NCBI RefSeq assembly: GCF_024029435.1
Contig: NZ_CP097118.1
Location: 930,001-994,000 of the forward strand
DNA from: Fructilactobacillus hinvesii
GTDB lineage: Bacteria > Bacillota > Bacilli > Lactobacillales > Lactobacillaceae
DNA length: 64,000 nucleotides
Reading direction: 5' to 3'
A model generated the notes under the pieces. That model did no database searches. It was given only the letters and a program-made list of their open reading frames with translations, and was not told where the DNA came from. The translations under genes and the position numbers were made by a program. This document shows, in pieces, positions 31,412-58,623 of the stretch. Each line of letters begins with the position of its first letter. The stretch's first letter is position 1.

Positions 31412-34400
31412 ATGTTTAATAAAACTTGTCGAAAAAAGATGTACAAAGCGGGTAAGTCCTGGGTAATTGGGGCAATTTTCACCATTACGTTAGCTGGAGT
31501 TACTGTAGTTAGTGGGGACCAGGTCTCTGCTGCTGATAATCAGAATGAACCAGCTACTAGGATAACTAAACAGGTTGATTCTAATGAAGCGAATAAAGCT
31601 GATGATAGTCAACTGGCACCGGATCAAAAGCAACCTGATGTAAAAGCTGCTGAGGAAAAACCAACAGTTACGCAATTAGCAACCAAAACTGATGCTGCCA
31701 CCGGAAATACGAAAACGGAAGCAGCTCAAACGGAAAAGCAGGAAAGCCAGTCAGAAAAAAGTAACGTTATTGCAGAAGATCCACAGCAATCAGTTAATTT
31801 AGAAAAAGATGCTGCTAATAATGTTTCAGATCAGCAAAAGTCGGTTCAATCGACATCAGAACAAACGCAAACTGCTAGTTCTAAAGAAACGAATTTCGAG
31901 TCACAATCTAATCAATTAAATTCAAAGGCTAGTTCTGATCAAGTAGATTCCGAAAAACAAAACTCGGAAAATGGTGAACAACCAGATTCAAATAACGAAC
32001 TTCGTCATGACTCGCAAGAAACAAAAAACACAGATTCTAACCAGCAACCAGAATCAGCAAAAACTGATGATGAAGAACAAAATGAAGAAACCGATTTTAA
32101 CAAACACAATAAATTATCAGAAAAACCAGGCCAGTATCTTGATAAAAATGGTGCTTTTTACTATCAATATGATGATGGTAGCTATGCTAAAGGTTTAACC
32201 ACAATTAGTGGATTCACTCAATACTTTGATTCTGACGGAAAACAAGTAAAAGGTGACTACGCTACGATTGATGGTAAAAATTATTACTTTAAGCCCGGGA
32301 GTGGGAATCTTGCCACTGGAATTCAAACAATTAATTCCCAAAAAATTGCATTTAATAAAGATGGTAGTCGAGTGCAAAACTCATTTTATGAATCTGATAA
32401 GCAAAAAGAATTGAATAATTTAGATGCTTTAAAATTGCAACCAGACGATGATGACGAAACTGGGAATAGCGCTAGTTCAAATAGTAATCCTTATTATCAA
32501 CAACGGAAAAAAGAAAATGACAAAAATAAAGTATCCGGAAATATTTATTATGTCGATCAAAACGGTGAAATTGTAACAGGATTACAAACGGTTGATAAAA
32601 AAACTTACTATTTTGACGGTAGCGGAATTATGCGGCGGGGATTCTCAGGAGTCTTTAACGGGGAGTTACTTTATTTTGATGCTAAGACTGGAATTGCAAC
32701 GGAAACGAAAAATTCCAAAATCAAAGAAGGAATTAATGATCAGACCACTGCATACACACCTCATAATGCTGTCAATGGAACCTCAAAGGATAATTTTAAA
32801 AACATTGATGGATATTTAACTGCTGAGTCATGGTATCGACCAAAAGAAATTTTGGCTGAGGGAAAAGACTGGCGGGCGTCGACAGCAAATGAATATCGTC
32901 CGATTCTAATGACTTGGTGGCCAGACAAAAAGACGGAAGTTAACTATTTAAATTATATGGTTAAAGCCGGCTTAATTGATAACCATCAGGGGTTTAAACT
33001 TGATGATGACCAACATTTATTAAATGAATCAGTTACCGCTGTGCAAAAAGCGATTGAAACTAAAATTAGTCAACGAAATGATACAGAATGGTTACGTGAA
33101 TTGATGAAAGATTTCATCAAAGAACAACCACAGTGGAATATTATTAGTGAAACTCCTAATCATGATCACTTGCAACGAGGGGCGTTAAGTTTCGTTAACA
33201 GTAAATTGACGCCCGACGCTAATTCAAACTTCCGTTTGATGAATCGGACGCCAACGAACCAAACTGGAAAAGAAAAGTATGACGTTGACAAAAGTAAGGG
33301 TGGATTTGAGTTACTATTAGCTGATGATGTTGATAATTCCAATCCTGTGGTTCAAGCGGAACAATTAAACTGGTTACATTTCTTAATGCACTTTGGTTCC
33401 ATTACTAATAATGATCCAGATGCCAATTTTGATGGAATTAGAATTGATGCCGTTGATAACGTTGATGCTGATTTACTCAATATTTCTGCCAAGTACTTTG
33501 ATTCCTTATACGGGGTAAAAAAATCTGATAAAAATGCGATGAGTCATTTGTCCATTTTAGAGGACTGGAGTCATAATGATCCGCTTTACATGCGTGATCA
33601 TGGGCAAGGTCAGCTTAGTATGGATGATTATAGTCACACGCAGTTAATTTGGTCACTAACTAAACCAGATAAACTGCGGGGGGCGATGAAACGATTCTTA
33701 GAATATAAAATGGTAGATCGAAGCCGAGATAATCAAGATAATCAAGCTCTACCTAATTATTCTTTCGTAAGAGCACACGATAGTGAGGTGCAAACTGTCA
33801 TTGCACAAATTATCGAAGATTTATATCCTGGAGTAAAAAATAGTTTGGCACCAACCCAAGCACAGCTTGATGCTGCTTTCAAAGTTTACAATGCGGATAT
33901 GAAGCAGGCTAAGAAAAAGTATACCCATTACAATATGCCGAGTGCATATGCAATGATGCTTACCAACAAAGACACGATCCCTAGGATTTACTATGGAGAT
34001 TTGTATACAGATGATGGGGCATTCATGGAAACCAAATCACCTTACTTTGAAGCAATTGATAATTTCCTTAAGACTAGAATGAAATATGTAGCTGGTGGGC
34101 AAACGATGGATGTCGATAAAAATGATGTCTTAACCAGCGTTCGCTTTGGAAAAGGGGCTATGAATGTCGATGACCAAGGGACTGATGAAACTAGAACCGA
34201 AGGAATTGGAGTAATTGTCAGCAATAATCACGATTTGAAGTTAAATGAATCTGATCAAGTTGTATTGCACATGGGAGCTTCCCATCGAAACCAAGCCTTT
34301 AGAGCGGTAATTTTAACGATGACCGATGGCTTACAAAATTACGCTACTGATGAACAGGCTCCCGTTCGTTGGACAAATGAAAATGGAGATTTAATTTTCA

Positions 34401-36262
34401 CTGGTAATGAAATTAAGGGTTATCTCAATCCCCAAGTTTCTGGATATCTTTCTGCATGGGTTCCAGTTGGGGCAGCTGTAAATCAAGATGCAAGAACTAA
34501 CGCCAGTGAACAACAGAATAATGATGGGAATACTTTCCGGTCTAATTCGGCTTTAGATTCACAAGTTATTTTTGAAGGATTTTCAAATTTCCAAGCAATG
34601 CCGAAAACTATTGATGAGTTTGCTAACGTTCGGATTGCTAAAAATGCTCAAATGTTCCGTGATTGGGGAATTACTAGTATGCAGCTTGCACCACAGTATC
34701 GGTCTAGTGAAGACGACACTTTCCTAGACTCAATCGTTAAAAATGGATACGCATTTTCAGACCGATACGATCTTGGATTCAATACGCCAACTAAATATGG
34801 AACTGATGGACAGCTGCGTGATGCAATTAAGGCCCTTCACGCCCAAGGAATTCAAGTTATGGCTGACTTTGTTCCTGACCAACTTTACAACATGAAAAAG
34901 CAGGAACTAACGACGGTCAATCGGACAGACTCCTTAGGAAAACAGAATACAGATTCTGATATGCAGGGAGATCTATATGTTTCTAATACCCGTGGTGGTG
35001 GAGCTTACCAAGAAAAATTTGGTGGGGAATTCTTAGATCAATTGCAAAAAGATTATCCAGAATTATTTAAGGATAAACAGATTTCAACTGGTCAACCGAT
35101 TGATCCAAGCACTAAAATTAAGGAATGGTCTGCTAAATACTTTAATGGAAGTAACATTGAAGGTAAGGGTAAAGATTTCGTCTTAAAGGATCCTTCTACT
35201 GGTCAATACTTCAAGGTGGTTGATAATGGGAACGGTAATGATTATCTGCCAAAACAATTGGTTAACCTACCTTCTTCCGCCGGATTTACTCGTGATCAAC
35301 AAGGAATTATTTACTTTGATACGAGCGGTTATCAAGCCAAGCATTCTATCATTAAAGATGATTTAGATAATTACTACTACTTTGATGACAATGGTCACTT
35401 AGCAACGGGAGAACAAACGATTAATGGTTCCAAGTATTACTTTTTACCAAATGGAACTGAACTAAGAAGTTCATTCTTCCAGGGGCAAGATGGCAATACG
35501 TATTATTACACCGGTTCAGGAAAACAAGCGCGTAACCAATACGTTCTAGATAAGGGTGGTAATGCTTACTACTTTGGTGATGATGGGAAGATGTTGACTA
35601 ATCAACTATATTCCGTTGAAGGACGTTATACCCAATATTTTGACCAGAATGGGGTGGAAGCTAAAGACCGCTTTGTTAAAACTCCTGATGGTCACGTTCA
35701 TTATTTTGATGATGGAAGTGGGAACTTAATTGCTAATCGTTATGCTGGTGATCATGATGGTAACTGGTATTACATTGATAAGAACGGAAATGCTACGACC
35801 GGAATGATTGAGCTAGATGGAGTGAAAAAATATTTCCACGACAATGGAATTCAAAGCAAGGGCGAATTTATTGACCTTGGAAATAATCAATTTTTCTATA
35901 CCGATGCAAGAGACGGGCATGTTGTTTCTGGATATCAAGTAATTAATGGACATCCACATTATTTCGATCCAAATACTTCAATTCAAGTTAAAGGTGACTT
36001 TGCTACTAATCCGGAAAACGGTAAAACTTATTACTTTGATGTAAATAATGGTACTCCGGTAGAAAATCAATATCTTACCAAAGATGGTAAAACTTATTAT
36101 CTTAATGCTGCTGGTGAAAAGGTATATGGAACCCAAGTGATTGGGGGAAAAAAAGTTAATTTTGATTCACAAACAGGAGCATTGTTACAAGAAACTGTAG
36201 ATGACAAACCTGAAGCTACGGTTACTGATACTGATGAAGCAAAAACAGCAGTTACTAATTAA
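31412..36262 (+). CDS. Glucansucrase (GH70), secreted
   Basis: Glucansucrases polymerise the glucose of sucrose into extracellular alpha-glucan. The 1616-residue protein has a KxYKxGKxW signal peptide (residues 1-42). A Gln/Ser/Glu-rich variable region follows (about 43-240), then YG/cell-wall-type glucan-binding repeats (about 245-440), the catalytic core, and further repeats (about 1310-1590). The core is circularly permuted as in GH70. [17 protein letters not shown] (nucleophile Asp, about 678), LSILEDWS (acid/base Glu, about 717) and [11 protein letters not shown] (stabiliser Asp, about 790) come before [10 protein letters not shown] (about 1151). The SEV after the stabilising Asp is the dextransucrase pattern, so mainly alpha-1,6 glucan is expected. 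There is no LPxTG anchor. A terminator follows. Confidence 0.97.
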
Positions 36263-45370: not shown

Positions 45371-45392
45371 AAAGTCGGTAAAAAGTCGGTAA
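45371..45392. repeat. Tandem 11-bp repeat near the prophage end (integrase arm sites?)
   Basis: AAAGTCGGTAA occurs twice in perfect tandem (45371-45381, 45382-45392), with an inverted TTACC just before it (45362-45366). Such short repeats beside an attachment core are typical arm-binding sites of phage tyrosine integrases. Confidence 0.6.
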
Positions 45393-46219: not shown

Positions 46220-47146
46220 TTAGTAGAACGTTCCCCAGGCAGCTTGACCAACTGGACGAACCGGGCAATAGCGTGTCCCATTGTAACTCGTGTAGACGAT
46301 CCAAACGTAGCCATCATTAACTACGTATCCATAGTAAACAAGTGAATACCATGCTGGCAATTGGCCGGTTACGGATGATTCAACATTCGGTGCACTGTGA
46401 ACGTTGATTGGTGTATCACCATTCACGAATGTACCATCTTCAGACGTATAAGATTGTGCACGCGGCTGTGATGGCCGGCTAGGTTGCGACGGTTTTGGCG
46501 CTGGCACAGGTTGGCTAGGTGTTGAATCACTTACGCCATTCTCAACGTCGTGAGCAAACTGTGCTGGTGTAATTCCCATCTTTGATAAGTAGCCATACGG
46601 GTCTGTGTGGTCACCCCAAATGTTGTTTGAAATCCAGTTGTGGCTCTTAACGCCCCAGTAGTTCCCATCATCAACGGTTAGCGGGATCCCATAGGCGTTA
46701 GCACTATCACGGATGAGATTGATGTACGTAGCGTAGTTTACTTTGAAATCCTCGTAGTTGTCAGTTTCTGCTAATTCAATTTGTACAGGTGAGTTAGCGT
46801 TAGCCCACGTTCCGGCTCCCCATTGAACGTAACCAGGTTGTCCCACTTGATAAATGTGACCAGGTGTACCATCATTGGCATTTCCCACGATATAAGCAAC
46901 GTAGGCTCCGTTTGAGTACCAGGTACGCTTTTCAAAAGCTGCATTGTTCTGTGCACTAGCATTTGGTGTCCCAGTTTCGTGGGCAATGATGGTTTTGTTA
47001 GTGGTTGGTTGGCTAGAACCTTCACCAGTACCTAACGAATAAGTGTAGTCCACAGTAGCAGCCTTAGTATTGGCCGGTACAAGTGCAAATAAAAAGCCCG
47101 CAGACAGAACTGCGAGCGTTGAAACTACTTTAGTTTTTGTTTCCAT
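46220..47146 (-). CDS. Secreted endolysin: amidase with SH3b domain
   Basis: The 308-residue product has a Sec-type signal sequence (residues 1-30, METKTKVVSTLAVLSAGFLFALVPANTKA). An N-acetylmuramoyl-L-alanine amidase domain of the Amidase_2/PGRP type follows (about 50-185: TIIAHETG and KSHNWISNNIWGDHTDPYGY with the zinc-binding His residues). A Pro/Ser linker (PAPKPSQPSRPSQP) leads to a C-terminal SH3b wall-binding domain (about 240-308). The start at 47146 follows AAGGGGG; the longer frame lies in the holin gene. The signal sequence means export could use the host Sec system, with the holin controlling timing. Confidence 0.92.
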   Translation of the reverse strand: METKTKVVSTLAVLSAGFLFALVPANTKAATVDYTYSLGTGEGSSQPTTNKTIIAHETGTPNASAQNNAAFEKRTWYSNGAYVAYIVGNANDGTPGHIYQVGQPGYVQWGAGTWANANSPVQIELAETDNYEDFKVNYATYINLIRDSANAYGIPLTVDDGNYWGVKSHNWISNNIWGDHTDPYGYLSKMGITPAQFAHDVENGVSDSTPSQPVPAPKPSQPSRPSQPRAQSYTSEDGTFVNGDTPINVHSAPNVESSVTGQLPAWYSLVYYGYVVNDGYVWIVYTSYNGTRYCPVRPVGQAAWGTFY

Positions 47147-47402
47147 TTTTTGGTCCCCCTTGATTTCCGTTGTAATCATAAACAACGCCAAGCATGACGC
47201 CAATAGTTAGAATTGTGCCTAAAACACCAACGACTTGGTCTTGATGAATTGGTAATTCAACCCCAAAGGCGTTGCAAATTTGCTGTGCAAGTAATAAAAA
47301 AAGTAGAACAAGGTTCAGAACGACTGACCCGTCTACTTTCCCGTCACTACTAACAATGGCCGTACGTTCAAGCCACTGTCTTAGTTTTCCTTTATTTGTC
47401 AA
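47130..47402 (-). CDS. Holin
   Basis: A small protein (about 90 residues) with two membrane helices: VVLNLVLLFLLLAQQICNAFG and VVGVLGTILTIGVMLGVVYDY. A charged Asn/Gly/Lys tail (GNQGGPKNGNKN) follows. This is the layout of phi-LC3/LLH-type holins that form membrane lesions at lysis. The best start is the TTG at 47402, eight bases after GGGAG; ATG at 47420 or GTG at 47411 are possible. Both ends overlap neighbours, as in compact lysis cassettes. Confidence 0.8.
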   Translation of the reverse strand: MTNKGKLRQWLERTAIVSSDGKVDGSVVLNLVLLFLLLAQQICNAFGVELPIHQDQVVGVLGTILTIGVMLGVVYDYNGNQGGPKNGNKN

Positions 47403-49468: not shown

Positions 49469-50539
49469 CTATTGATGGGATTTACTATTAATACGACCAT
49501 TAGTGTAATTTTGATAGTCCAAAATTGTTTTTGGCGTGCTATTCAAGGTCAGCTGGGTTGGCTGCCCTGGATCATTAAATCCGGGTGGGTAATATTGAAA
49601 ACCCACGGTGGCCAAGTTAGTGATAAATTTAGCCGGCCGGATTTCTAATCTGACTAAATCTCCTTGAAATGGTTGAAATTGATAGTCATTAGTAATCTCA
49701 ATCGTAAAACTAGGTTCCGGCTGGAGCTGACTCTTTGCATAGTTGCGCATTGATTCCGGATTTGTAAATCGCTCATCGCTAATGGTGGCAATTTCGTGAA
49801 TCCCATACTTGTTAATGGAATCAGGAATGGTTACTAAGAACGGATCGAAAAAGTATTCAATGGGCGCATTGTCGGGTGCTCCCTCGGCTTTATCTTTTGC
49901 TTTTCCGATACACCAAACCTGATTAGACAGTGAGGTTGAATCATAGGTAATTTTAATATCTGATGCGTTTGCCTGATAATCAATTCGATGGCCACGATTA
50001 ATTTCAAAATCGTTCCGGCTATAAACTTTGATATGACGATTATCCGGAACAATTACAGCGTCGGGCCAAACCTCAATTAATTTGTTAAGGGCTTCTTGGC
50101 CACTAACGTTTCCAAAATTTTCAATTTGCTTGGTTGGGAAACTGCTAAGCACTTCAAAACTAAAACCGGCCACATTTCCATTGAACACAAAGCCAAGTAC
50201 ATCAGCTGGAGAATAAGTTATGACCCCGTTCCGAGTTTCCCGCTGTCGAAACCATTGGCATTCTTTGGACACATGAGTAGCGTTAACTGTTTTGGTATTC
50301 AGACCATTACTGTAATCGGATTGAACCTGCTTGATGAGGTACTCCTGACCTTGAAAGAACAATGAGGCCTCTGGCTCCAACAACTCATAGTCCATTTGCT
50401 GGTCGTCAAGCGCAACCAGCTGCAATTGATACGTACCGTTAAGTTCCCACTGTAAATAAAAAGAGTTGCGCAAGACGCAACTCAATTTCGTTTCAAATGT
50501 TTGGTCGTTTAATTTTCCTTTGACTAATAAATCATCCAT
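49469..50539 (-). CDS. Tail endopeptidase/Tal-like protein
   Basis: The 356-residue protein matches the phage minor tail (Prophage_tail) family that forms the tail tip: YQLQLVALDDQQMDYELLEP, YLIKQVQSDYSNGLNTKTVNATHVSKE, NKLIEVWPDAVIVPDNRHIKVYSRN and the C-terminal FQGDLVRLEIRP. These proteins form the hub through which DNA leaves. It starts within the last eight bases of the large depolymerase-like gene, so their synthesis is coupled. It is short for a Tal protein, consistent with enzymatic domains being on the neighbouring protein instead. Confidence 0.8.
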   Translation of the reverse strand: MDDLLVKGKLNDQTFETKLSCVLRNSFYLQWELNGTYQLQLVALDDQQMDYELLEPEASLFFQGQEYLIKQVQSDYSNGLNTKTVNATHVSKECQWFRQRETRNGVITYSPADVLGFVFNGNVAGFSFEVLSSFPTKQIENFGNVSGQEALNKLIEVWPDAVIVPDNRHIKVYSRNDFEINRGHRIDYQANASDIKITYDSTSLSNQVWCIGKAKDKAEGAPDNAPIEYFFDPFLVTIPDSINKYGIHEIATISDERFTNPESMRNYAKSQLQPEPSFTIEITNDYQFQPFQGDLVRLEIRPAKFITNLATVGFQYYPPGFNDPGQPTQLTLNSTPKTILDYQNYTNGRINSKSHQ

Positions 50540-53249
50540 GACGCACCTTCGTTCCTAACGAAGAGTTAAGGTCAATCTCCGGAAAGTATTCACACTGATT
50601 CAGATTTGCCAAGTCATTGTATAGAAAGGAACCGTGCCGCAATAAGAAAGGTCCAACAGTGGAGACTGGATCACTCCATTGTGTAAGTTCCGAATTCAAT
50701 GCCTGGCGGCGTAAATAATGAGAGTTCCAGGCCTGGCCTTGATTACTCCAAATCCGATCGTAGTAAAGATAAACGTTCCCACCTGCTTGAACTAATTCAG
50801 GGCCCTCTTCGTACCAAGCGTTATAATTCCCATCGAGATTGGTACTTAACCGAATGAATTTGCCATGTAAGCTGTCACTTACATAAACGTGATTACGGCT
50901 CATAAAGAGATAATACCGGCCATTGATGTAGTGCATTGAGGCATCAATATCGCTGCCACAATCAACATCTAATTCTTGCCACTCATTGCTAACGACACCG
51001 GATTCTAAATCAATGTCGGCGATAAAGACGAAGCGCCGGCCGTTAAAAATGTCGTTATTCCGATAGGCTGATGTAGCAGTGCAAATGATGTGCCAGTTAT
51101 GGTCTCTATCTGCAAAAAGTTCCGATGCCCAAACAAATTTCAAATCATCCCGCTGGTTAAGACCATTCTTAATGCGTTCAAAGTGTATAAAATCTTTAGT
51201 TCGCATTAAGTCCAAGGTCCCGGTTAGGTAGTACCAATCTCCGTATTTAATCATGAAGCCGTCTCGCAAGTCTAACCTAGGAAACTTCTTGATTAATGAA
51301 AAATTAATGCCATTGGTAGACTTGCAAAGAACCGGAACTGAAGCCCACGGGTTGTCTTTAGTGGCCATTGAGACATCCATTCCGAAATAGAGGTAGTTGG
51401 CATCTAAAGCTTGCTTTAAAGCGCTAGGTTGACTGTTATCCGGGTCGGGAATCTGAAATGAAGTTGGCAGTACCGGTTTCGGTTCAATTTTCCGATAATG
51501 GTAGACTACGTTTTCTACACCCTCTCTGTAAACTCCGTTTGGAATCCCTAAAACAAAGGTAAATTCATATCCTTCAAAAGCTTCTTGTTTTGTGGAGTAG
51601 AAGTCCCCGATTTTTCCGGTTATGGAAAGCACATTGCCTAAAATTTGATTATCTTGGTCCACGTACCGCACGTGCAAATAGCCATAGTCAGGTCTTTCGA
51701 AAAGATGCTGTGTAATTCGAAACATACCGCTGGCATTGCTGTTGGCGTACACGGTATACCACTGCGCTGCGCTTAAAGTATAACGAACTGCTGAATAGAC
51801 CCGCTTTTGGTTCAGAACTAGCTCATAGCTTTGCGTGTCGGTCCGGATATCAAAGTCCAACTTAGTCGGATCCGGGAGATTAAGCGGATATCGATAAATA
51901 GCACTGTAAGCTCGTGGAGATTCATTGCTATATGAGCCACCCTTTCGTTGGATTGAATAGTAGTTCTCATCAAAGTTAATGATCAACGTACAGTCACCGT
52001 CGTCAACATAGGCGTCTAATGAAATTTGTCCGGTTAGTTTCTTTCCATCATTTGAGTAACTTACGTTGAGAATTTGAGCTAAATTGTCAGCTTTCGGAAT
52101 TTTCAATGCCTGCTGATTAGCAGTTCCGCTGTAATGATTAACTTGGCTAAAATCATAATCAATCACTGGTACTAGAGAAATTTCCAGTTGGCCATTGACC
52201 ACTTTAAAAATGTGGAAGCTAGTACAACCACTAGAAGCTAATGTTGGGTCCCCGTTTTTAACCGACACGGTACTTGTTTCCCAGTTACCCAACCAAGCAT
52301 TCCCAATCACCTGGTTAAAACTATCATCGTTATCATGAATTGAATTAAACGGGTCTGGCAAACTCATAAAGTTGGCCCCGTAATAGTCAGACCCTTCATC
52401 TAACCTAGTAATGCGGTCCCAACTTGTCATTTTAAAACTAGGAAAATGATCATCGAATTGCTGACCATCAAGTGGTTCCAGAATTCCTCCAGAAACCGAA
52501 CTATTCTCTTTGACTTCAATCGCATACGTTCCCATCGTGTGACCATTACCAGGATTCCCACCAAAGCACAGAAATGAGTGCATGGATCCATCAGCCGAAT
52601 CTTTTAGCCGAATGAGGTTCGGGCATTCAATCATCCCCAGGAACACTTTGTCAGTGTTGATTGTCACACAGCCAATGTAGTTGAACCGTTGGCCATCTTT
52701 AGAAACATAAAAACCAATCTTGTCTCCTTCGGCTAGCAGCACTTCAAGCGATTGAATTTTGTCATTGTAAAAAATATGGGGATCCCGGCAATCTCCTTCA
52801 CTGTTTATCGGTCCCCCATCCGGCAACCCATAAACGGGATGATCTAAGTATGGTTTAAACGAGTACCCATCATCCGTGGAGTAGGCCATGTATTGCTTTT
52901 GCTTTCCTCCGTCGTTGTCATCGGGCGAAGTAAAAATGGCCACTTTTGTCGTTACGTTTTTAGGTAGGTCAGAAAAGAAACCGCGAGAATTATCAATGAT
53001 GGATCCAGTCCATACTTGGCCCCAAATTCCGTTGTAGCTTGTAATTGCTTCACCAACGTCCTCGTAGTGATTTAGGTCTTTAGTTCGGATGTGATGCCAG
53101 TGGTTACTGTGTGAGTTGTATTCGTCAGTGTCATTTTTCAGAAAGTAGAAATGATAATAGCCATCTTGACCCATGAACATGGTCTGAGTATCGTTCCCGA
53201 CTCCTTCCGTATCTGTGTAGTGAAATTTCTGTCTATATCTCGAAGCCAA
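50532..53249 (-). CDS. Tail protein with GH32-like, MucBP-like and GH43-like domains (probable exopolysaccharide depolymerase)
   Basis: The 905-residue protein has no signal peptide and starts at TTG (53249) after GGAGGTG. Residues 1-320 look like a GH32 five-bladed propeller: VGNDTQ with Asp20 (nucleophile), WTGS (80-83), CRDPHIF with Asp156 (stabiliser) and IECPNL with Glu208 (acid/base). Residues 330-515 fit the GH32 beta-sandwich. A MucBP-like domain follows (about 522-586: YGYLHVRYVDQDNQILG). Residues 605-885 look like a second propeller of GH43 type with LRDGFMIKYGDWYYL (Asp663), SDIDASMHYINGRYYLF (Asp769) and EEGPELVQAGGNVYLYY (Glu815). It lies between dit and tal, so it is probably a tail spike or baseplate enzyme that cuts fructan or another surface glycan. 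Confidence 0.8.
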   Translation of the reverse strand: MASRYRQKFHYTDTEGVGNDTQTMFMGQDGYYHFYFLKNDTDEYNSHSNHWHHIRTKDLNHYEDVGEAITSYNGIWGQVWTGSIIDNSRGFFSDLPKNVTTKVAIFTSPDDNDGGKQKQYMAYSTDDGYSFKPYLDHPVYGLPDGGPINSEGDCRDPHIFYNDKIQSLEVLLAEGDKIGFYVSKDGQRFNYIGCVTINTDKVFLGMIECPNLIRLKDSADGSMHSFLCFGGNPGNGHTMGTYAIEVKENSSVSGGILEPLDGQQFDDHFPSFKMTSWDRITRLDEGSDYYGANFMSLPDPFNSIHDNDDSFNQVIGNAWLGNWETSTVSVKNGDPTLASSGCTSFHIFKVVNGQLEISLVPVIDYDFSQVNHYSGTANQQALKIPKADNLAQILNVSYSNDGKKLTGQISLDAYVDDGDCTLIINFDENYYSIQRKGGSYSNESPRAYSAIYRYPLNLPDPTKLDFDIRTDTQSYELVLNQKRVYSAVRYTLSAAQWYTVYANSNASGMFRITQHLFERPDYGYLHVRYVDQDNQILGNVLSITGKIGDFYSTKQEAFEGYEFTFVLGIPNGVYREGVENVVYHYRKIEPKPVLPTSFQIPDPDNSQPSALKQALDANYLYFGMDVSMATKDNPWASVPVLCKSTNGINFSLIKKFPRLDLRDGFMIKYGDWYYLTGTLDLMRTKDFIHFERIKNGLNQRDDLKFVWASELFADRDHNWHIICTATSAYRNNDIFNGRRFVFIADIDLESGVVSNEWQELDVDCGSDIDASMHYINGRYYLFMSRNHVYVSDSLHGKFIRLSTNLDGNYNAWYEEGPELVQAGGNVYLYYDRIWSNQGQAWNSHYLRRQALNSELTQWSDPVSTVGPFLLRHGSFLYNDLANLNQCEYFPEIDLNSSLGTKVRHG

Positions 53250-53261
53250 TTAAACACCTCC

Positions 53262-54098
53262 TTAAACGTAAATGAACGGGAATTCAAATTTAATTTTACA
53301 TGATGAACAACCATTAACTGTAATTGCATTAAAGCCCGGTTCCAACTGTAAATTCCCGTAATCACTATTAATACTATCCTGGGTTCCGTTGGCGTAGGTA
53401 TTAATCCCATCAAGTACCAGATTATTAGTGCCATCGTTCTTTTTAAAATACGTGTAGCTGGTATTGTTAGTCCAGTTATTGAGCTTAATAAATGGGCCAA
53501 CCCAGCTCATATGGATTTTTAAATCGTGATGTTCATAATATGGATCAATCGGAACCCCACTCGGATTCATTAACTTAAAGTTGAACTTGTCAGTAAAAAT
53601 GAAGTCATTCGCAGTCATGACCGGAATGTCCCAACCTAAAGGAAAATCATCCCATAAATCCTGCTGTGACAAAGAGTCAAAGCGTGAATAGCGATAACCG
53701 CTGGGATTTTCCATCGGAATAACAATTGTACAGTCATGGCTACCGTTATCTATCGGTTTAATCTGAAAAGTAGTTGGCCGACAAAACATTACCAAATCAG
53801 GTTCCGAATTAGTTCTGATTCTATAAATCTTTTTCTGATGAAAAAACTGATTAATTAAGTAAATCCTGCTTCTATAATCCTGGAAGTTATCGTAATGAAA
53901 TAAAAATCTTAAATTTACTGAATTCTTTTGAATGGAAGAGCTAGTGAACAGACTGCCGTCTAATCCAGCATAATTTTGATAATTATTAACTATTGCTGGA
54001 TCGTCAGAATCACAACCCATAAAATCCATAATTGGCAGCTTGTCCTTGATGTTAAACTCAGGTTTCCCATCAATCATTAAATATAATTCTGGATTCAT
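53262..54098 (-). CDS. Distal tail protein (Dit)
   Basis: The 278-residue protein belongs to the siphovirus distal tail family. The N-terminal part forms the ring under the tail tube (MNPELYLMIDGKPEFNIKDK, YRIYLINQFFHQKKIYRI-type region). The second part (from about residue 150, WDDFPLGWDIP) is the galectin-like domain that often binds sugar or anchors receptor-binding proteins. It follows the tape measure gene by one base and precedes the depolymerase-like gene. GGGAGG precedes the ATG. Confidence 0.88.
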   Translation of the reverse strand: MNPELYLMIDGKPEFNIKDKLPIMDFMGCDSDDPAIVNNYQNYAGLDGSLFTSSSIQKNSVNLRFLFHYDNFQDYRSRIYLINQFFHQKKIYRIRTNSEPDLVMFCRPTTFQIKPIDNGSHDCTIVIPMENPSGYRYSRFDSLSQQDLWDDFPLGWDIPVMTANDFIFTDKFNFKLMNPSGVPIDPYYEHHDLKIHMSWVGPFIKLNNWTNNTSYTYFKKNDGTNNLVLDGINTYANGTQDSINSDYGNLQLEPGFNAITVNGCSSCKIKFEFPFIYV

Positions 54099-54099
54099 A

Positions 54100-57000
54100 C
54101 TAACCTCCCAATTGATAATTTCTTAAAGATCGATTATTAGCATCTTGAATGTATCTTTGCCTTGGATCCTGAGCCGTTTTAAGAACTGCATCTGCGGTAT
54201 CTTTAGATGCGATAACCGTATCAGTTTGTAGTTTTATGAGAGTAGCAACCATATTTTTTAAATCTTGTACTTCCTGTTCTAATCCGTTTCCGGATCCATT
54301 ATTTCCGTTACGATGAGGTGAAGCTCCATCAGAAGCAAATTGAGCATTAATTTCATCCATCAGCTGTTCAGCTCGGGGACGTTTTGCCGGATCCGTTGGA
54401 ATGACGAATTCACCCATGTTACCTTCAGCAATCTCAATCATTTGATGCTGATTGACGTAACCACCATTAGCGTAACCATGACCTTGGCCAAGAAAAGATA
54501 AATCCTTTCCATAACGCTTTTTCGCATAATTCAATCCAGCAAGCAAACTGTCATACCCGTTAAATGGATTGTTGTGACCTGGGAATGCATTAGCTCTAAA
54601 CGTTGCTCCAGTAACTTGCATTAGTCCTTTAGCAAGGTCACCAGTGATGTTATTAATATCACCAATAGCACCTTGAACAGCCTTTTCATTACCACCAGAT
54701 TCAGTAGCAATTTGGCGAAGAACTTTATTAACCATTCCTTCACTGGAAGAAAGTCCGTTGGCCTTTAAGGCAGCAACTACCTGGTCACGCCAACGTTGTA
54801 CACCATGGCCGGATGGAGCACCACGGCCACCGCCACCATCGCCGGCAAAATCGGTAAAGAGCTTCTTAACCCAGTTAATTGATTCGCTAGCTAGTTTCCC
54901 AGGAAAATGGGTAATGATTTCACTAGCTAACTTAATGTTCGATGAAAAGTTACCCAAGAAGTGATCCAGCGTTGCTTCCATAAATTTAGCGGGATTTTTA
55001 ATAATTTTTTCAGCATCATCTACGATGTCTTTTGCACCATCCCATAGACCACTAAAAAAGCCACCAATTCCGCCCTTATAAGCAGGAATTCCCATAAGTT
55101 TAGCCATTCTGGCCGAACGTTCACCATCCAACACAGACGTGCCGGCCGGCAGCGGAACAATCATGTTGCGCTTATTCGGAAACATCCCGACTTGGCCATT
55201 CGGTAGCTTGTACATTTCCCGGAAGTTCGAACCTGGACCATCGTTCACCATGGCCAAACCGCCCTTATGTGTATCCGGCGTACCGTTAGCATACCGAACC
55301 ATAGGAATTTCAAACTTACCAATTTTGTGAGCGCCAACCTTGTCTAGAATCCAATTAATACCGTCCCGAATTTTATCAAGCATCGTATTGATTGGTTTAA
55401 TAACTCCGTTAGCAATGTCAGCTACAACGTGGCCAACCGTTCGAACAGCACTTTTAGCTGTGTTAATAACTCCATTCCATGTATCGCTCCAAGCTTTACC
55501 AAGAAAGTGAGTTACAGAATCCCAAACGGAGCGTACTCCATTTATAAATCCGTTGAATACTCCGGAAATACCATTCCAAATGCCTTTTCCAAAGTTAAAG
55601 ACTGCATTCCAGGTATTATTCCAAATAATTGAAATGAATCTCAAAGAGGAATTAAACACATTCCGGACTCCATTCCAGAAACCGCCTAAGAACGAAGTGA
55701 TTCCGTTCCAAATACCCCGACCGATGTTGAAAATAGCATTCCAAGAATTAGTCCAGATACTAGAAACAAAGTGAAGGGAAGAATTGAATACATTCCGGAT
55801 CCCGTTCCAAAATCCACCTAAAAATGAAGTAATTCCATTCCAAACGCTCTTTCCAACATTAGCAACAGAGGTCCAGGTAACGTGCCAAATGTTTTCAATA
55901 AAGTGAAGAGAGGAACTAAAGACCTTAGTTGTTCCGTTCCAAAAACTAACAAAGAATTTACCAATAGCGTTAAACCCGCTAAAAATGATATTCCTAACCG
56001 TATTAACAAAATCACGGAATGGCTTTACTTTGTCGTAAAGCATTTTAGGGATCCTGACGAACGGATTAATAATGATTAATCCAATGCCTTTCCAATTATT
56101 TTTAAAGAAATCAACGACGGCCTTAAATGACTTAACAATCGCCCGGCCCAGTCCGTTAACAAAGTCTCTAAAAGGTTTAATTTTTGCATAGGCTAGAACT
56201 ACCGCAGTTACCAAAGCTGTTATTCCAATGATTGCTAGTCCAAAGGGATTAGTTGCAAAAGCAATTGCCATTCGACCTAATGATTTAACAACTGACAATG
56301 CCATTGAAGCCATCGATTTTCCAACTAAAATAGCTGTTTTAGTAGCTGATTTAGTCATCGATACAAGGTTTTTACCGAAATCTGCTGCAGCCCGGCCAGT
56401 ACCTTTAACCAACTGTCCCAAGCTGCCGGAAACTTTGAAGTACATTTTTTCTACTCCACTAGCAAAAGAATTCATACCTTTTGAAAATCCGCTAGCAGCT
56501 CCTCTAAACGCCGGTCCCACTTTAGACCATGATTTAGTAATTTTGCTAGCATCCTCAGCTACTTCAATTCCTCTGAAACCCTTAAATAAACCATTTACGG
56601 CTGCAAATGGACCATGAATCATTCTAAATGTCCCGGCAATTGGAACGAGAGCAGCATTCATTAGAGTTGATGCTTTGCTGGTAATAATCATGCTACTAGC
56701 CATAGCAGCAAATGCTTTTGGATGCTCACTAGCTGCTCCTCCAACTAGTTTAATTACCGGAGCCAAATCCTTTAGAGTTTCAATTAAGACTTTAAAGGTT
56801 CCGGATCCCGTTTCTTTGAAAACTTCAAAGAAGTCTTTGATGTCCTTAGCATGGGCAGCAACAGCATTACTAATGCTAGTAATTCCTTTGGCCAAACCAT
56901 TAACCATGTTATCCATGGCCTTTTGACTATCTTTAACATTAAATGCCTTAGAAAAGGCTTGGGTAATGGTATTAATCCCATTGGCAGCTGCTTTCCCAAC

Positions 57001-58623
57001 TTTATTAAATTCAGCTTCTGTTCTTGGGTCAGAAACCCATTTGGAAACGGCCAAGTACATCGGATTCTTTGATTCCATAATTGGCTTTTCAATCGCACCA
57101 ATTAACGCTGGGACTCGAGCTTTAATGACCCGTTCGGCCCCTTGCATGGTCGACAGCATGTTTTCAGCTGCCTTACCGTACTTAACGTTACCTAATTTTT
57201 CAAAGACCTTTTCCATGTCATCTGCAGAAACCTTACCTTGCTTAACTATTTCATTAAGCTGTTCAACGGTAACATTCTTGCTTTTAGCAAGTTCTTCACG
57301 GTACATCGGGAAATACTGTGTGATCTGATTAATTTCACCGGCACTGGCTTTTCCTCGAGACAATGCATTGGTCATATCTTGCGATACGGCATCAATTTGT
57401 TGACCATTTAACCCAACGGCATCAGCCATGTTAAGCATGGCTTTGGTCATTTCGTGGGCTTCATCCTTACTGGAATGAAGGTGATAGAATTTCTGTTCTA
57501 ACTCATCCGTTTGTTCAGCAGATTGACCAGTGGCCACGGATAACTTATTAACGTCATCGACCATACCCTGGGCATCTTTTCGATGGCCAGTTAATGTAGT
57601 CCAAACGGCAACCATTTTCTGCTGCTGTTTGTCATATTCCATTCCGGCTCTAGTCGCTTCACCAATTGATCCAGTTAACCGGGCCCAACCAGAAATAACA
57701 GCATTGGAAACTAAGTTAGCAGCAAATGCTGCTTTGAAAACAGATTGGTGTTCCCGGCCTTTTTCATTAGTCTCTTGGATAGCATTACTTAATCGCTTGA
57801 ACGGACTAGGATTAATTTCCTCAATCCGACGATTTAGTTGACCTACTTCTGATTGAGCTTCTGCCATGCTAGTCTTCGTTTTTTCGACTCTGGCTGATTG
57901 AACTAAGAATGCTTCGTTAGATTTATCTAGTTCTAGCTTTAATCTAGCTAATTGCTCTTCCTGGGCTTTATACTCTGATGTATTTTCTTTCCCGGCCGCT
58001 TTCAATTGGGACAAAGTCGACTTCAAAGTGTCATATTTACTATGCGTCTCATCTAGTCTACTTTTGCTACTCTGCAATTCAGAATCCTGGATTTTTAATT
58101 GCTGAGTCAAACTTTCCAGTCCCTGCTTAGTTCCTTCTAGCTTAACTTTGGTAGCATCTAAGGTTCGGCCTTCGGCTTCTAGTCTGGCCACATGAGCTTC
58201 GGTTGCTTGGTTAGTTAAGTTATAACCTCGTTGAAGTTCGGCAAGTCCGCTAGTATAGTAAGTATTTTTTTGCCGAGCAGATTCCTGTTGGGCCGAATAC
58301 TTAGCAACTTGGGACTCCGCTTTCTCAATTTGGGTCTGCAACTTTAAATACTGATCGGCTCCGGTTTTAGTTGTGACATCTAATCCTTCTTGTTTGTTTC
58401 GCAGTAACTCGATTTTGTTTTCTAACGTAGTCATTACGTTACCAAGCCCGTCGATTTTGGCCTTATTGGCACCCATCGCATCGCCCAGGGCATTTGCTTG
58501 AGCAATCCCATTCTTCATGGCATTAACGTTAGTCTGCATAGCCCGGTTAAAGCTCTTTAAAGAGTCTTCGGCTCCAACAGTATCCAGGGCAATTTTAGTG
58601 TTCATTTGGAATGAAGTTTGCAT
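54100..58623 (-). CDS. Tape measure protein with lytic transglycosylase domain
   Basis: The 1507-residue protein sets the tail length. The N-terminal 280 residues are coiled coil (ELLRNKQEGLDVTTKTGADQ, SQLKAAGKENTSEYKAQEEQ). The TMP core (about 310-560: GQSAEQTDELEQKFYHLHSS, ALSRGKASAGEINQITQYFP) follows, then membrane helices near 780-830. Three to four Trp/Phe-rich 44-residue repeats lie at about 890-1030. An SLT-type transglycosylase domain is near 1280-1400, with Glu in LRQIATESGGNEKAV and GLMQVTG. This domain would locally open the wall during DNA entry. GGAGG lies before the ATG. Confidence 0.93.
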   Translation of the reverse strand: MQTSFQMNTKIALDTVGAEDSLKSFNRAMQTNVNAMKNGIAQANALGDAMGANKAKIDGLGNVMTTLENKIELLRNKQEGLDVTTKTGADQYLKLQTQIEKAESQVAKYSAQQESARQKNTYYTSGLAELQRGYNLTNQATEAHVARLEAEGRTLDATKVKLEGTKQGLESLTQQLKIQDSELQSSKSRLDETHSKYDTLKSTLSQLKAAGKENTSEYKAQEEQLARLKLELDKSNEAFLVQSARVEKTKTSMAEAQSEVGQLNRRIEEINPSPFKRLSNAIQETNEKGREHQSVFKAAFAANLVSNAVISGWARLTGSIGEATRAGMEYDKQQQKMVAVWTTLTGHRKDAQGMVDDVNKLSVATGQSAEQTDELEQKFYHLHSSKDEAHEMTKAMLNMADAVGLNGQQIDAVSQDMTNALSRGKASAGEINQITQYFPMYREELAKSKNVTVEQLNEIVKQGKVSADDMEKVFEKLGNVKYGKAAENMLSTMQGAERVIKARVPALIGAIEKPIMESKNPMYLAVSKWVSDPRTEAEFNKVGKAAANGINTITQAFSKAFNVKDSQKAMDNMVNGLAKGITSISNAVAAHAKDIKDFFEVFKETGSGTFKVLIETLKDLAPVIKLVGGAASEHPKAFAAMASSMIITSKASTLMNAALVPIAGTFRMIHGPFAAVNGLFKGFRGIEVAEDASKITKSWSKVGPAFRGAASGFSKGMNSFASGVEKMYFKVSGSLGQLVKGTGRAAADFGKNLVSMTKSATKTAILVGKSMASMALSVVKSLGRMAIAFATNPFGLAIIGITALVTAVVLAYAKIKPFRDFVNGLGRAIVKSFKAVVDFFKNNWKGIGLIIINPFVRIPKMLYDKVKPFRDFVNTVRNIIFSGFNAIGKFFVSFWNGTTKVFSSSLHFIENIWHVTWTSVANVGKSVWNGITSFLGGFWNGIRNVFNSSLHFVSSIWTNSWNAIFNIGRGIWNGITSFLGGFWNGVRNVFNSSLRFISIIWNNTWNAVFNFGKGIWNGISGVFNGFINGVRSVWDSVTHFLGKAWSDTWNGVINTAKSAVRTVGHVVADIANGVIKPINTMLDKIRDGINWILDKVGAHKIGKFEIPMVRYANGTPDTHKGGLAMVNDGPGSNFREMYKLPNGQVGMFPNKRNMIVPLPAGTSVLDGERSARMAKLMGIPAYKGGIGGFFSGLWDGAKDIVDDAEKIIKNPAKFMEATLDHFLGNFSSNIKLASEIITHFPGKLASESINWVKKLFTDFAGDGGGGRGAPSGHGVQRWRDQVVAALKANGLSSSEGMVNKVLRQIATESGGNEKAVQGAIGDINNITGDLAKGLMQVTGATFRANAFPGHNNPFNGYDSLLAGLNYAKKRYGKDLSFLGQGHGYANGGYVNQHQMIEIAEGNMGEFVIPTDPAKRPRAEQLMDEINAQFASDGASPHRNGNNGSGNGLEQEVQDLKNMVATLIKLQTDTVIASKDTADAVLKTAQDPRQRYIQDANNRSLRNYQLGG
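55540..55960 (-). repeat. 132-bp coding repeats in the tape measure gene
   Basis: Three to four copies of a 44-residue unit (IWNGITSFLGGFWNGVRNVF, then NSSLRFISIIWNNTWNAVFN) follow each other. Trp and Phe recur about every 11 residues, the spacing known from tape measure proteins. Two central copies are nearly identical, suggesting recent tandem duplication that may alter tail length. Confidence 0.8.

What the first reader, a model, noticed from the sequence alone, without database searches (positions are those of the whole stretch)
50532..53249. Phage tail protein with two different glycosidase-like propellers around a MucBP-like domain
Seen directly: GH32-type motifs NDTQ (Asp20), RDP (Asp156) and EC (Glu208), a MucBP-like segment at about 522-586, and GH43-type motifs (Asp663, Asp769, Glu815) in one 905-residue protein between dit and tal. 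Known: GH32 enzymes cut fructans, and a levan-degrading phage enzyme (LevP) exists in Bacillus phages. Inference: a virion-bound depolymerase that clears fructan or mixed exopolysaccharide, with the second propeller cutting or binding another sugar. I know no described protein with this domain order.
Basis: partly seen in the sequence, partly recalled or inferred. Interest (0 to 1): 0.9.

Follow-up and report, generated by a model that had tools for sequence, protein, structure and literature searches.

The report
Swappable sugar-cutting enzymes on phage tail
A dormant virus in a fructose-loving lactic acid bacterium carries an unusual tail protein that joins a levan-cutting-type enzyme, a mucus-binding-type module and a second sugar-cutting-type enzyme, in a gene position where related viruses carry quite different enzymes that end in the same short peptide.

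Summary

The larger finding is the gene position. In Fructilactobacillus, 6 of 10 genomes carry this Tal, and all 6 have exactly one gene between Dit and Tal: a lone GH43-like protein (2), a GH5-like TIM barrel (3) or this triple fusion (1). All six end in [ND][ST]SLGT[KRE]V. Isolated phage EV3 has the same arrangement; its TIM-barrel protein shares its last 19 residues with unrelated GH43-like proteins. The peptide is absent in 9 of 9 Tal-fused GH43-like domains. I read it as a plug attaching exchangeable depolymerases to the tail tip (inferred). Activity, substrate and virion location are untested. The host genome has two glucansucrases and no levansucrase, so levan would have to come from other strains.

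The parts
50532..53249 (-). slot gene: 905-aa GH32-MucBP-GH43-like protein
51693..53249 (-). GH32 propeller and beta-sandwich, residues 1-519 (Asp20, Asp156, Glu208)
51492..51674 (-). MucBP domain, residues 526-586
50646..51410 (-). GH43-like five-bladed propeller, residues about 614-868 (Asp663, Asp769, Glu815)
50544..50588 (-). C-terminal tag YFPEIDLNSSLGTKV, residues 888-902; its last codons may also serve as the tal ribosome site
53262..54098 (-). Dit, distal tail protein
49469..50539 (-). Tal, prophage endopeptidase tail protein
54100..58623 (-). tape measure protein with a lytic transglycosylase (SLT) domain
46220..47203 (-). amidase endolysin with SH3 domain
45371..45392 (.). probable prophage attachment repeat (22 bp); the second copy lies outside the window at the end of the integrase gene

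Best explanation
The gene encodes a separate tail-tip enzyme of a temperate siphophage of Fructilactobacillus. It occupies a one-gene slot between Dit and Tal that holds a polysaccharide-cutting enzyme, and its last ~20 residues probably plug it into the Dit/Tal baseplate. In this phage the older slot enzyme, a GH43-like propeller, carries an added GH32 endo-levanase-type domain and a MucBP spacer or binding domain in front. The GH32 most likely cuts beta-2,6 fructan (levan) slime around cells; MucBP holds or spaces it near the surface; the GH43-like propeller cuts or grips another surface polysaccharide, perhaps one with furanose sugars. Shown by computation: domains, folds, catalytic residues, slot position, shared peptide on different folds. 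Inferred: virion location, plug role, activity, substrates, and the order of events.
For: Levan-type GH32: phrog_21583 levanase; profile scores LevB1 448 bits, levan fructotransferase 234, exo-inulinase 174. Catalytic residues invariant. Tail part: a lone GH43-like protein lies between Dit and Tal in two sister prophages, and the same domain is covalently fused to Tal in nine loci, five of them near-identical. One slot gene in 6 of 6 genus genomes with this Tal. Tag in 6 of 6 slot genes and in no other of 721 ORFs, in EV3 and four IMG/VR contigs, absent in 9 of 9 Tal fusions. F. sanfranciscensis TMW 1.1304 makes fructan with a levansucrase (PMC3231932, passages).
Against: No assay, no virion proteomics. 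Own genome lacks GH68. GH32 model is weak and the GH43 Pfam score marginal. Two GH43-like proteins elsewhere in tail regions (L051, L055) lack the tag although they are not fused to Tal. One triple fusion only, so this exact protein rests on a single genome.
Confidence: 0.58

Rival explanations
1. The protein is mainly a receptor-binding protein: both propellers and MucBP bind surface sugars and hydrolysis is weak or absent (enzyme folds used as lectins).
For: It sits where baseplate and receptor-binding parts sit; MucBP suggests adhesion; substrates are unknown.
Against: All three catalytic residues of each propeller are invariant in the rows aligned; the TIM-barrel slot proteins likewise keep their NEP and NEFG-type Glu residues in 3 of 3 rows.
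Confidence: 0.2
2. The shared tag is no plug: it is a by-product of the tal translation signal and of recombination at the conserved 3' end of the slot gene.
For: The tag ends in AAG, GAG or AGG followed by GTG or GTA, ribosome-site-like and just before the tal start. The 19 identical residues of EV3_015 and P0006/P0007 could come from recent recombination; DNA of P0006/P0007 was not available.
Against: In the Ser-Leu-Gly-Thr stretch codons differ (TCG/TCT/TCA, TTA/CTT, ACG/ACA/ACT) while the residues stay; YFP and [ND][ST]S lie upstream of any ribosome site; the peptide is absent in 9 of 9 covalent fusions.
Confidence: 0.25
3. The protein is released as a soluble enzyme, like LevP, and serves the lysogen or the spread of progeny rather than the virion.
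For: The phage levanase named in the records, LevP, is encoded outside the tail module; EV3 lysogens are reported dextranase-positive (PMC4234937, passage).
Against: Position between Dit and Tal, with the homologous GH43-like domain covalently part of Tal in nine loci.
Confidence: 0.12

Closest known systems
Phage EV3 of Fructilactobacillus (Lactobacillus) sanfranciscensis, EV3_014 to EV3_018 (LN885237; PMC4234937)
   Same: Dit, one glycosidase gene ('glycoside hydrolase family 5'), Tal in that order; same C-terminal tag; TTG start
   Different: TIM-barrel enzyme instead of GH32-MucBP-GH43; a dextranase gene two genes after Tal; no GH32
Lone GH43-like tail proteins of F. myrtifloralis (P0004) and F. 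ixorae (P0005)
   Same: Same slot, same tag, 37-39% identity to the C-terminal third
   Different: No GH32 and no MucBP
GH43-like domain fused to Tal (IMG/VR L025-L029; G145, G150, G261, G275; phrog_326)
   Same: Same GH43-like domain directly after Dit
   Different: Covalently part of Tal; no tag
LevP of Bacillus phage phiNIT1 and its SPO1-like relatives
   Same: Phage GH32 levanase, 32% identity over residues 3-240
   Different: Separate enzyme encoded outside the tail genes
LevB1 endo-levanase (PDB 9h8i) and levan fructotransferase (4fff-4ffi)
   Same: Best sequence and fold matches of the GH32 part
   Different: Bacterial enzymes without MucBP or tail position
LPxTG cell-wall GH32 of the same genus (G003, L021:9199-11589)
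   Same: Closest GH32 found by identity, 37% over residues 3-502
   Different: Wall-anchored by its C-terminus (read by eye), neighbours not phage genes; no GH43-like part

Membership tests
GH32, levanase type | GH32 sequence profile, nucleophile Asp, Asp of RDP and Glu of EC | tested here: met
   Pfam E 6e-35; three residues invariant in 8 of 8 rows
GH32, levanase type | five-bladed propeller with beta-sandwich | tested here: met
GH32, levanase type | endo-cleavage of beta-2,6 fructan | not testable with these tools
   Closest to LevB1 by profile; no assay
GH43 | clan GH-F propeller with Asp, Asp, Glu | tested here: met
GH43 | GH43 rather than a sister family such as GH159 | tested here: inconclusive
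MucBP | MucBP profile above cut-off | tested here: met
   46.9 bits against 23
MucBP | binds mucin or another surface glycan | not testable with these tools
   no assay
Virion-associated tail depolymerase | encoded in the tail-tip module | tested here: met
   between Dit and Tal; homologous domain fused to Tal in nine loci
Virion-associated tail depolymerase | present in the virion and cuts host polysaccharide | not testable with these tools
   needs proteomics and assays
LevP-type free phage levanase | stand-alone GH32 gene outside the tail module | tested here: not met
   fused to MucBP and a GH43-like domain between Dit and Tal

The most novel reading that the evidence does not exclude
Phages of Fructilactobacillus have a standard enzyme socket: one gene between Dit and Tal whose last ~19 residues plug any of several unrelated glycosidases (GH43-like propeller, GH5-like TIM barrel, or this GH32-MucBP-GH43 triple) into the same baseplate. 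Tail-tip depolymerases are exchanged as whole cassettes upstream of a fixed anchor peptide, and this phage enlarged its cassette with a levanase related to cell-wall enzymes of its host genus.
Probability: 0.48. Interest if true: 0.75.

Novelty: new variant of a known kind. Interest (0 to 1): 0.62.

Why it matters
Tail depolymerases are well known, above all in phages of Gram-negative bacteria; around Dit and Tal of lactic-acid-bacteria siphophages, peptidoglycan-cutting and sugar-binding modules are the usual description (established knowledge, recalled). A non-covalent socket that accepts unrelated glycosidases through one short C-terminal peptide would explain how these phages change tools for the glucan and fructan slimes of sourdough and flower lactobacilli, and it can be tested with purified proteins.

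Tried and rejected
Scans with the single sequence found no relative in viral or genome contigs. The GH43 profile found none in named genome contigs and 5 loci in viral contigs, all GH43-like/Tal fusions. The lone GH43-like protein of F. ixorae has no tblastn match in the named-phage collection at E 1e-3. LevP as a tail precedent was rejected. Of 6 'Bacteriophage sp.' GH32 records I examined 4 (MT835605, MT836746, MT837307, MT836884); no ORF there matches Dit, Tal or the tape measure, and the neighbours look bacterial by eye, so I do not count them as phage relatives; the other 2 were not examined. TIM-barrel slot proteins match no Pfam model (the one scanned), no NCBIfam model (two scanned) and only insignificant PDB rows (E 0.35 and above, among them a beta-glucosidase at 0.55); 'GH5' is the label of the EV3 record, and the clan reading of the NEP and NEFG motifs is recalled. 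One joint alignment (A6) paired GH32 parts with GH43 parts and was dropped; the halves were modelled apart, so their arrangement is unknown. Dropped row: P0010, a 225-residue partial match with another Pfam domain. Ten paper searches listed nothing whose title or abstract start describes this architecture, slot or tag; the library holds open-licence papers only. Seen of papers: PMC4234937 part 1 of 3 and passages; PMC3231932, PMC12403621 and PMC9863714 passages only.

Full report
Where it lies. The window is part of a 1.465-Mb single-contig genome. Two genomes of the same genus have contigs of exactly the lengths recorded for proteins named Fructilactobacillus myrtifloralis and F. ixorae, so the genus is Fructilactobacillus; the species of the window was not determined. 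The gene belongs to a prophage. A 22-bp repeat at window 45371 recurs at the end of an integrase gene outside the window, giving about 38.4 kb. Both terminase subunits, portal, tape measure, Dit, Tal, amidase endolysin and integrase match Pfam families; an HTH regulator is a likely repressor.

What the protein is. Residues 4-520 are GH32, 526-586 MucBP and about 614-868 a GH43-like propeller, followed by a short tail. The GH32 profile scores the LevB1 endo-levanase 448 bits, levan fructotransferase 234 and exo-inulinase 174. The Gln two residues after the nucleophile is shared with LevB1, levan fructotransferase and LevP, while the exo-inulinase shown has Asn there. The closest GH32 found by identity is a cell-wall LPxTG-type protein of the same genus (37% over residues 3-502; anchor read by eye), and matches to the MucBP region occur in 5 of 10 genus genomes (G002, G003, G005, G006, G008). 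I therefore infer that the GH32-MucBP part was taken from host surface proteins.

Where the GH43-like part comes from. Two sister prophages (G007, and G005 on a 48-kb plasmid that carries phage genes) have a lone GH43-like protein of about 300 residues exactly between Dit and Tal, 37-39% identical to the C-terminal third. In a family census the GH43 profile matched 19 of 301 genomes, some only weakly. Among 20 loci examined for context, nine have it fused to the N-terminus of Tal (L025-L029, which are near-identical, and L050, L052, L053, L054), two have it lone between Dit and Tal (L022, L023), one after Tal (L055), one next to a GDSL domain in a tail region (L051); four are chromosomal, not phage (L057, L058, L060, L061); one has no Dit or Tal nearby (L059); one matched through its tag alone (L056); one, L021, holds only the GH32. 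The four chromosomal proteins begin with a membrane-anchor-like stretch and a MucBP-like segment (below the Pfam cut-off in the one scanned). So the GH43-like propeller is a recurrent tail-tip part, and this phage extended it.

The slot. Six of 10 genus genomes have this Tal. All six have exactly one gene between Dit and Tal: this triple fusion, two lone GH43-like proteins and three TIM barrels. In a family census 58 of 301 genomes matched Tal; loci were returned for 30 of the places, 24 of them outside the genus. None of these 24 has a separate ORF of 120 residues or more between Dit and Tal; two have the GH43-like domain fused to Tal, and one has a 214-residue extension of Tal. The isolated phage EV3, reported active on five F. 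sanfranciscensis strains, has the same arrangement with a 'GH5' enzyme. Four IMG/VR contigs also have the TIM-barrel form; the 36 C-terminal residues printed are identical to those of G004 (one contig) or G006 (three), so they are hardly independent.

The tag. All six slot genes end in [ND][ST]SLGT[KRE]V. Among 721 distinct ORFs of 100 residues or more in the loci held at that point, only these six have it in the last 15 residues. EV3_015 has it too, and its last 19 residues are identical to those of the GH43-like metagenome proteins P0006 and P0007; apart from the last 20 residues EV3_015 and P0006 share no significant similarity. P0008 and P0009 carry close versions. The genome context of P0006-P0009 is unknown. 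The tag is absent in 9 of 9 Tal fusions, and also in the two GH43-like proteins at other tail positions; the latter shows that not every separate GH43-like tail protein uses it. Codons vary synonymously inside the tag, which argues for selection on the peptide; the last two codons may double as the tal ribosome site. The end of the protein has low confidence in the model, as a peptide that orders only on binding would. I infer a plug that replaces covalent fusion.

How it would work. The virion meets a slime coat, the GH32 cuts levan, MucBP and the GH43-like part engage a surface polysaccharide, and Tal reaches the wall. Levan is a plausible substrate in this genus: F. sanfranciscensis TMW 1.1304 has a levansucrase and makes fructan (PMC3231932, passages), and EV3 carries a dextranase, its lysogens being reported dextranase-positive (PMC4234937, passages). 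Against it: this host has two glucansucrases and no levansucrase, and GH68 is in 1 of 10 genus genomes. No activity or virion location has been shown.

Novelty. The domain order was found nowhere else in the protein database search, the named-phage collection or the 10 genus genomes; the protein search has limited reach to distant relatives. Tail depolymerases, phage levanases and GH43-like/Tal fusions are each known, so this is a new variant of a known kind. The shared peptide on unrelated enzymes is the part that would surprise a specialist; ten literature searches listed nothing on it.

Noticed in passing
window 31412-36262 (+) and G000:C1:134177-136594: Two large GH70 glucansucrases in the host; the one in the window has a KxYKxGKxW signal and choline-binding-type repeats.
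   Followed up: partly
L095:14118-16316 (G000, inside the prophage): An N6 DNA methylase family split over two ORFs, next to a second tyrosine recombinase, inside the prophage.
   Followed up: no
L113 (NZ_CP097479.1, F. ixorae, 48045 bp): A circular plasmid record that carries phage structural, lysis, integrase and replication-type genes: possibly a phage-plasmid or an excised phage.
   Followed up: no
L057, L058, L060, L061: Chromosomal proteins of another genus with a membrane-anchor-like start, a MucBP-like segment and a GH43-like domain, near ABC transporter genes.
   Followed up: partly
L105, L106, L107, L109 (MT835605, MT836746, MT837307, MT836884): Records named 'Bacteriophage sp.' whose genes look bacterial by eye.
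   Followed up: partly
L110:8569-10974 (phage EV3 dexA): The EV3 dextranase has collagen-like repeats near its N-terminus and lies two genes after Tal, so it may be a tail-fibre enzyme too.
   Followed up: no
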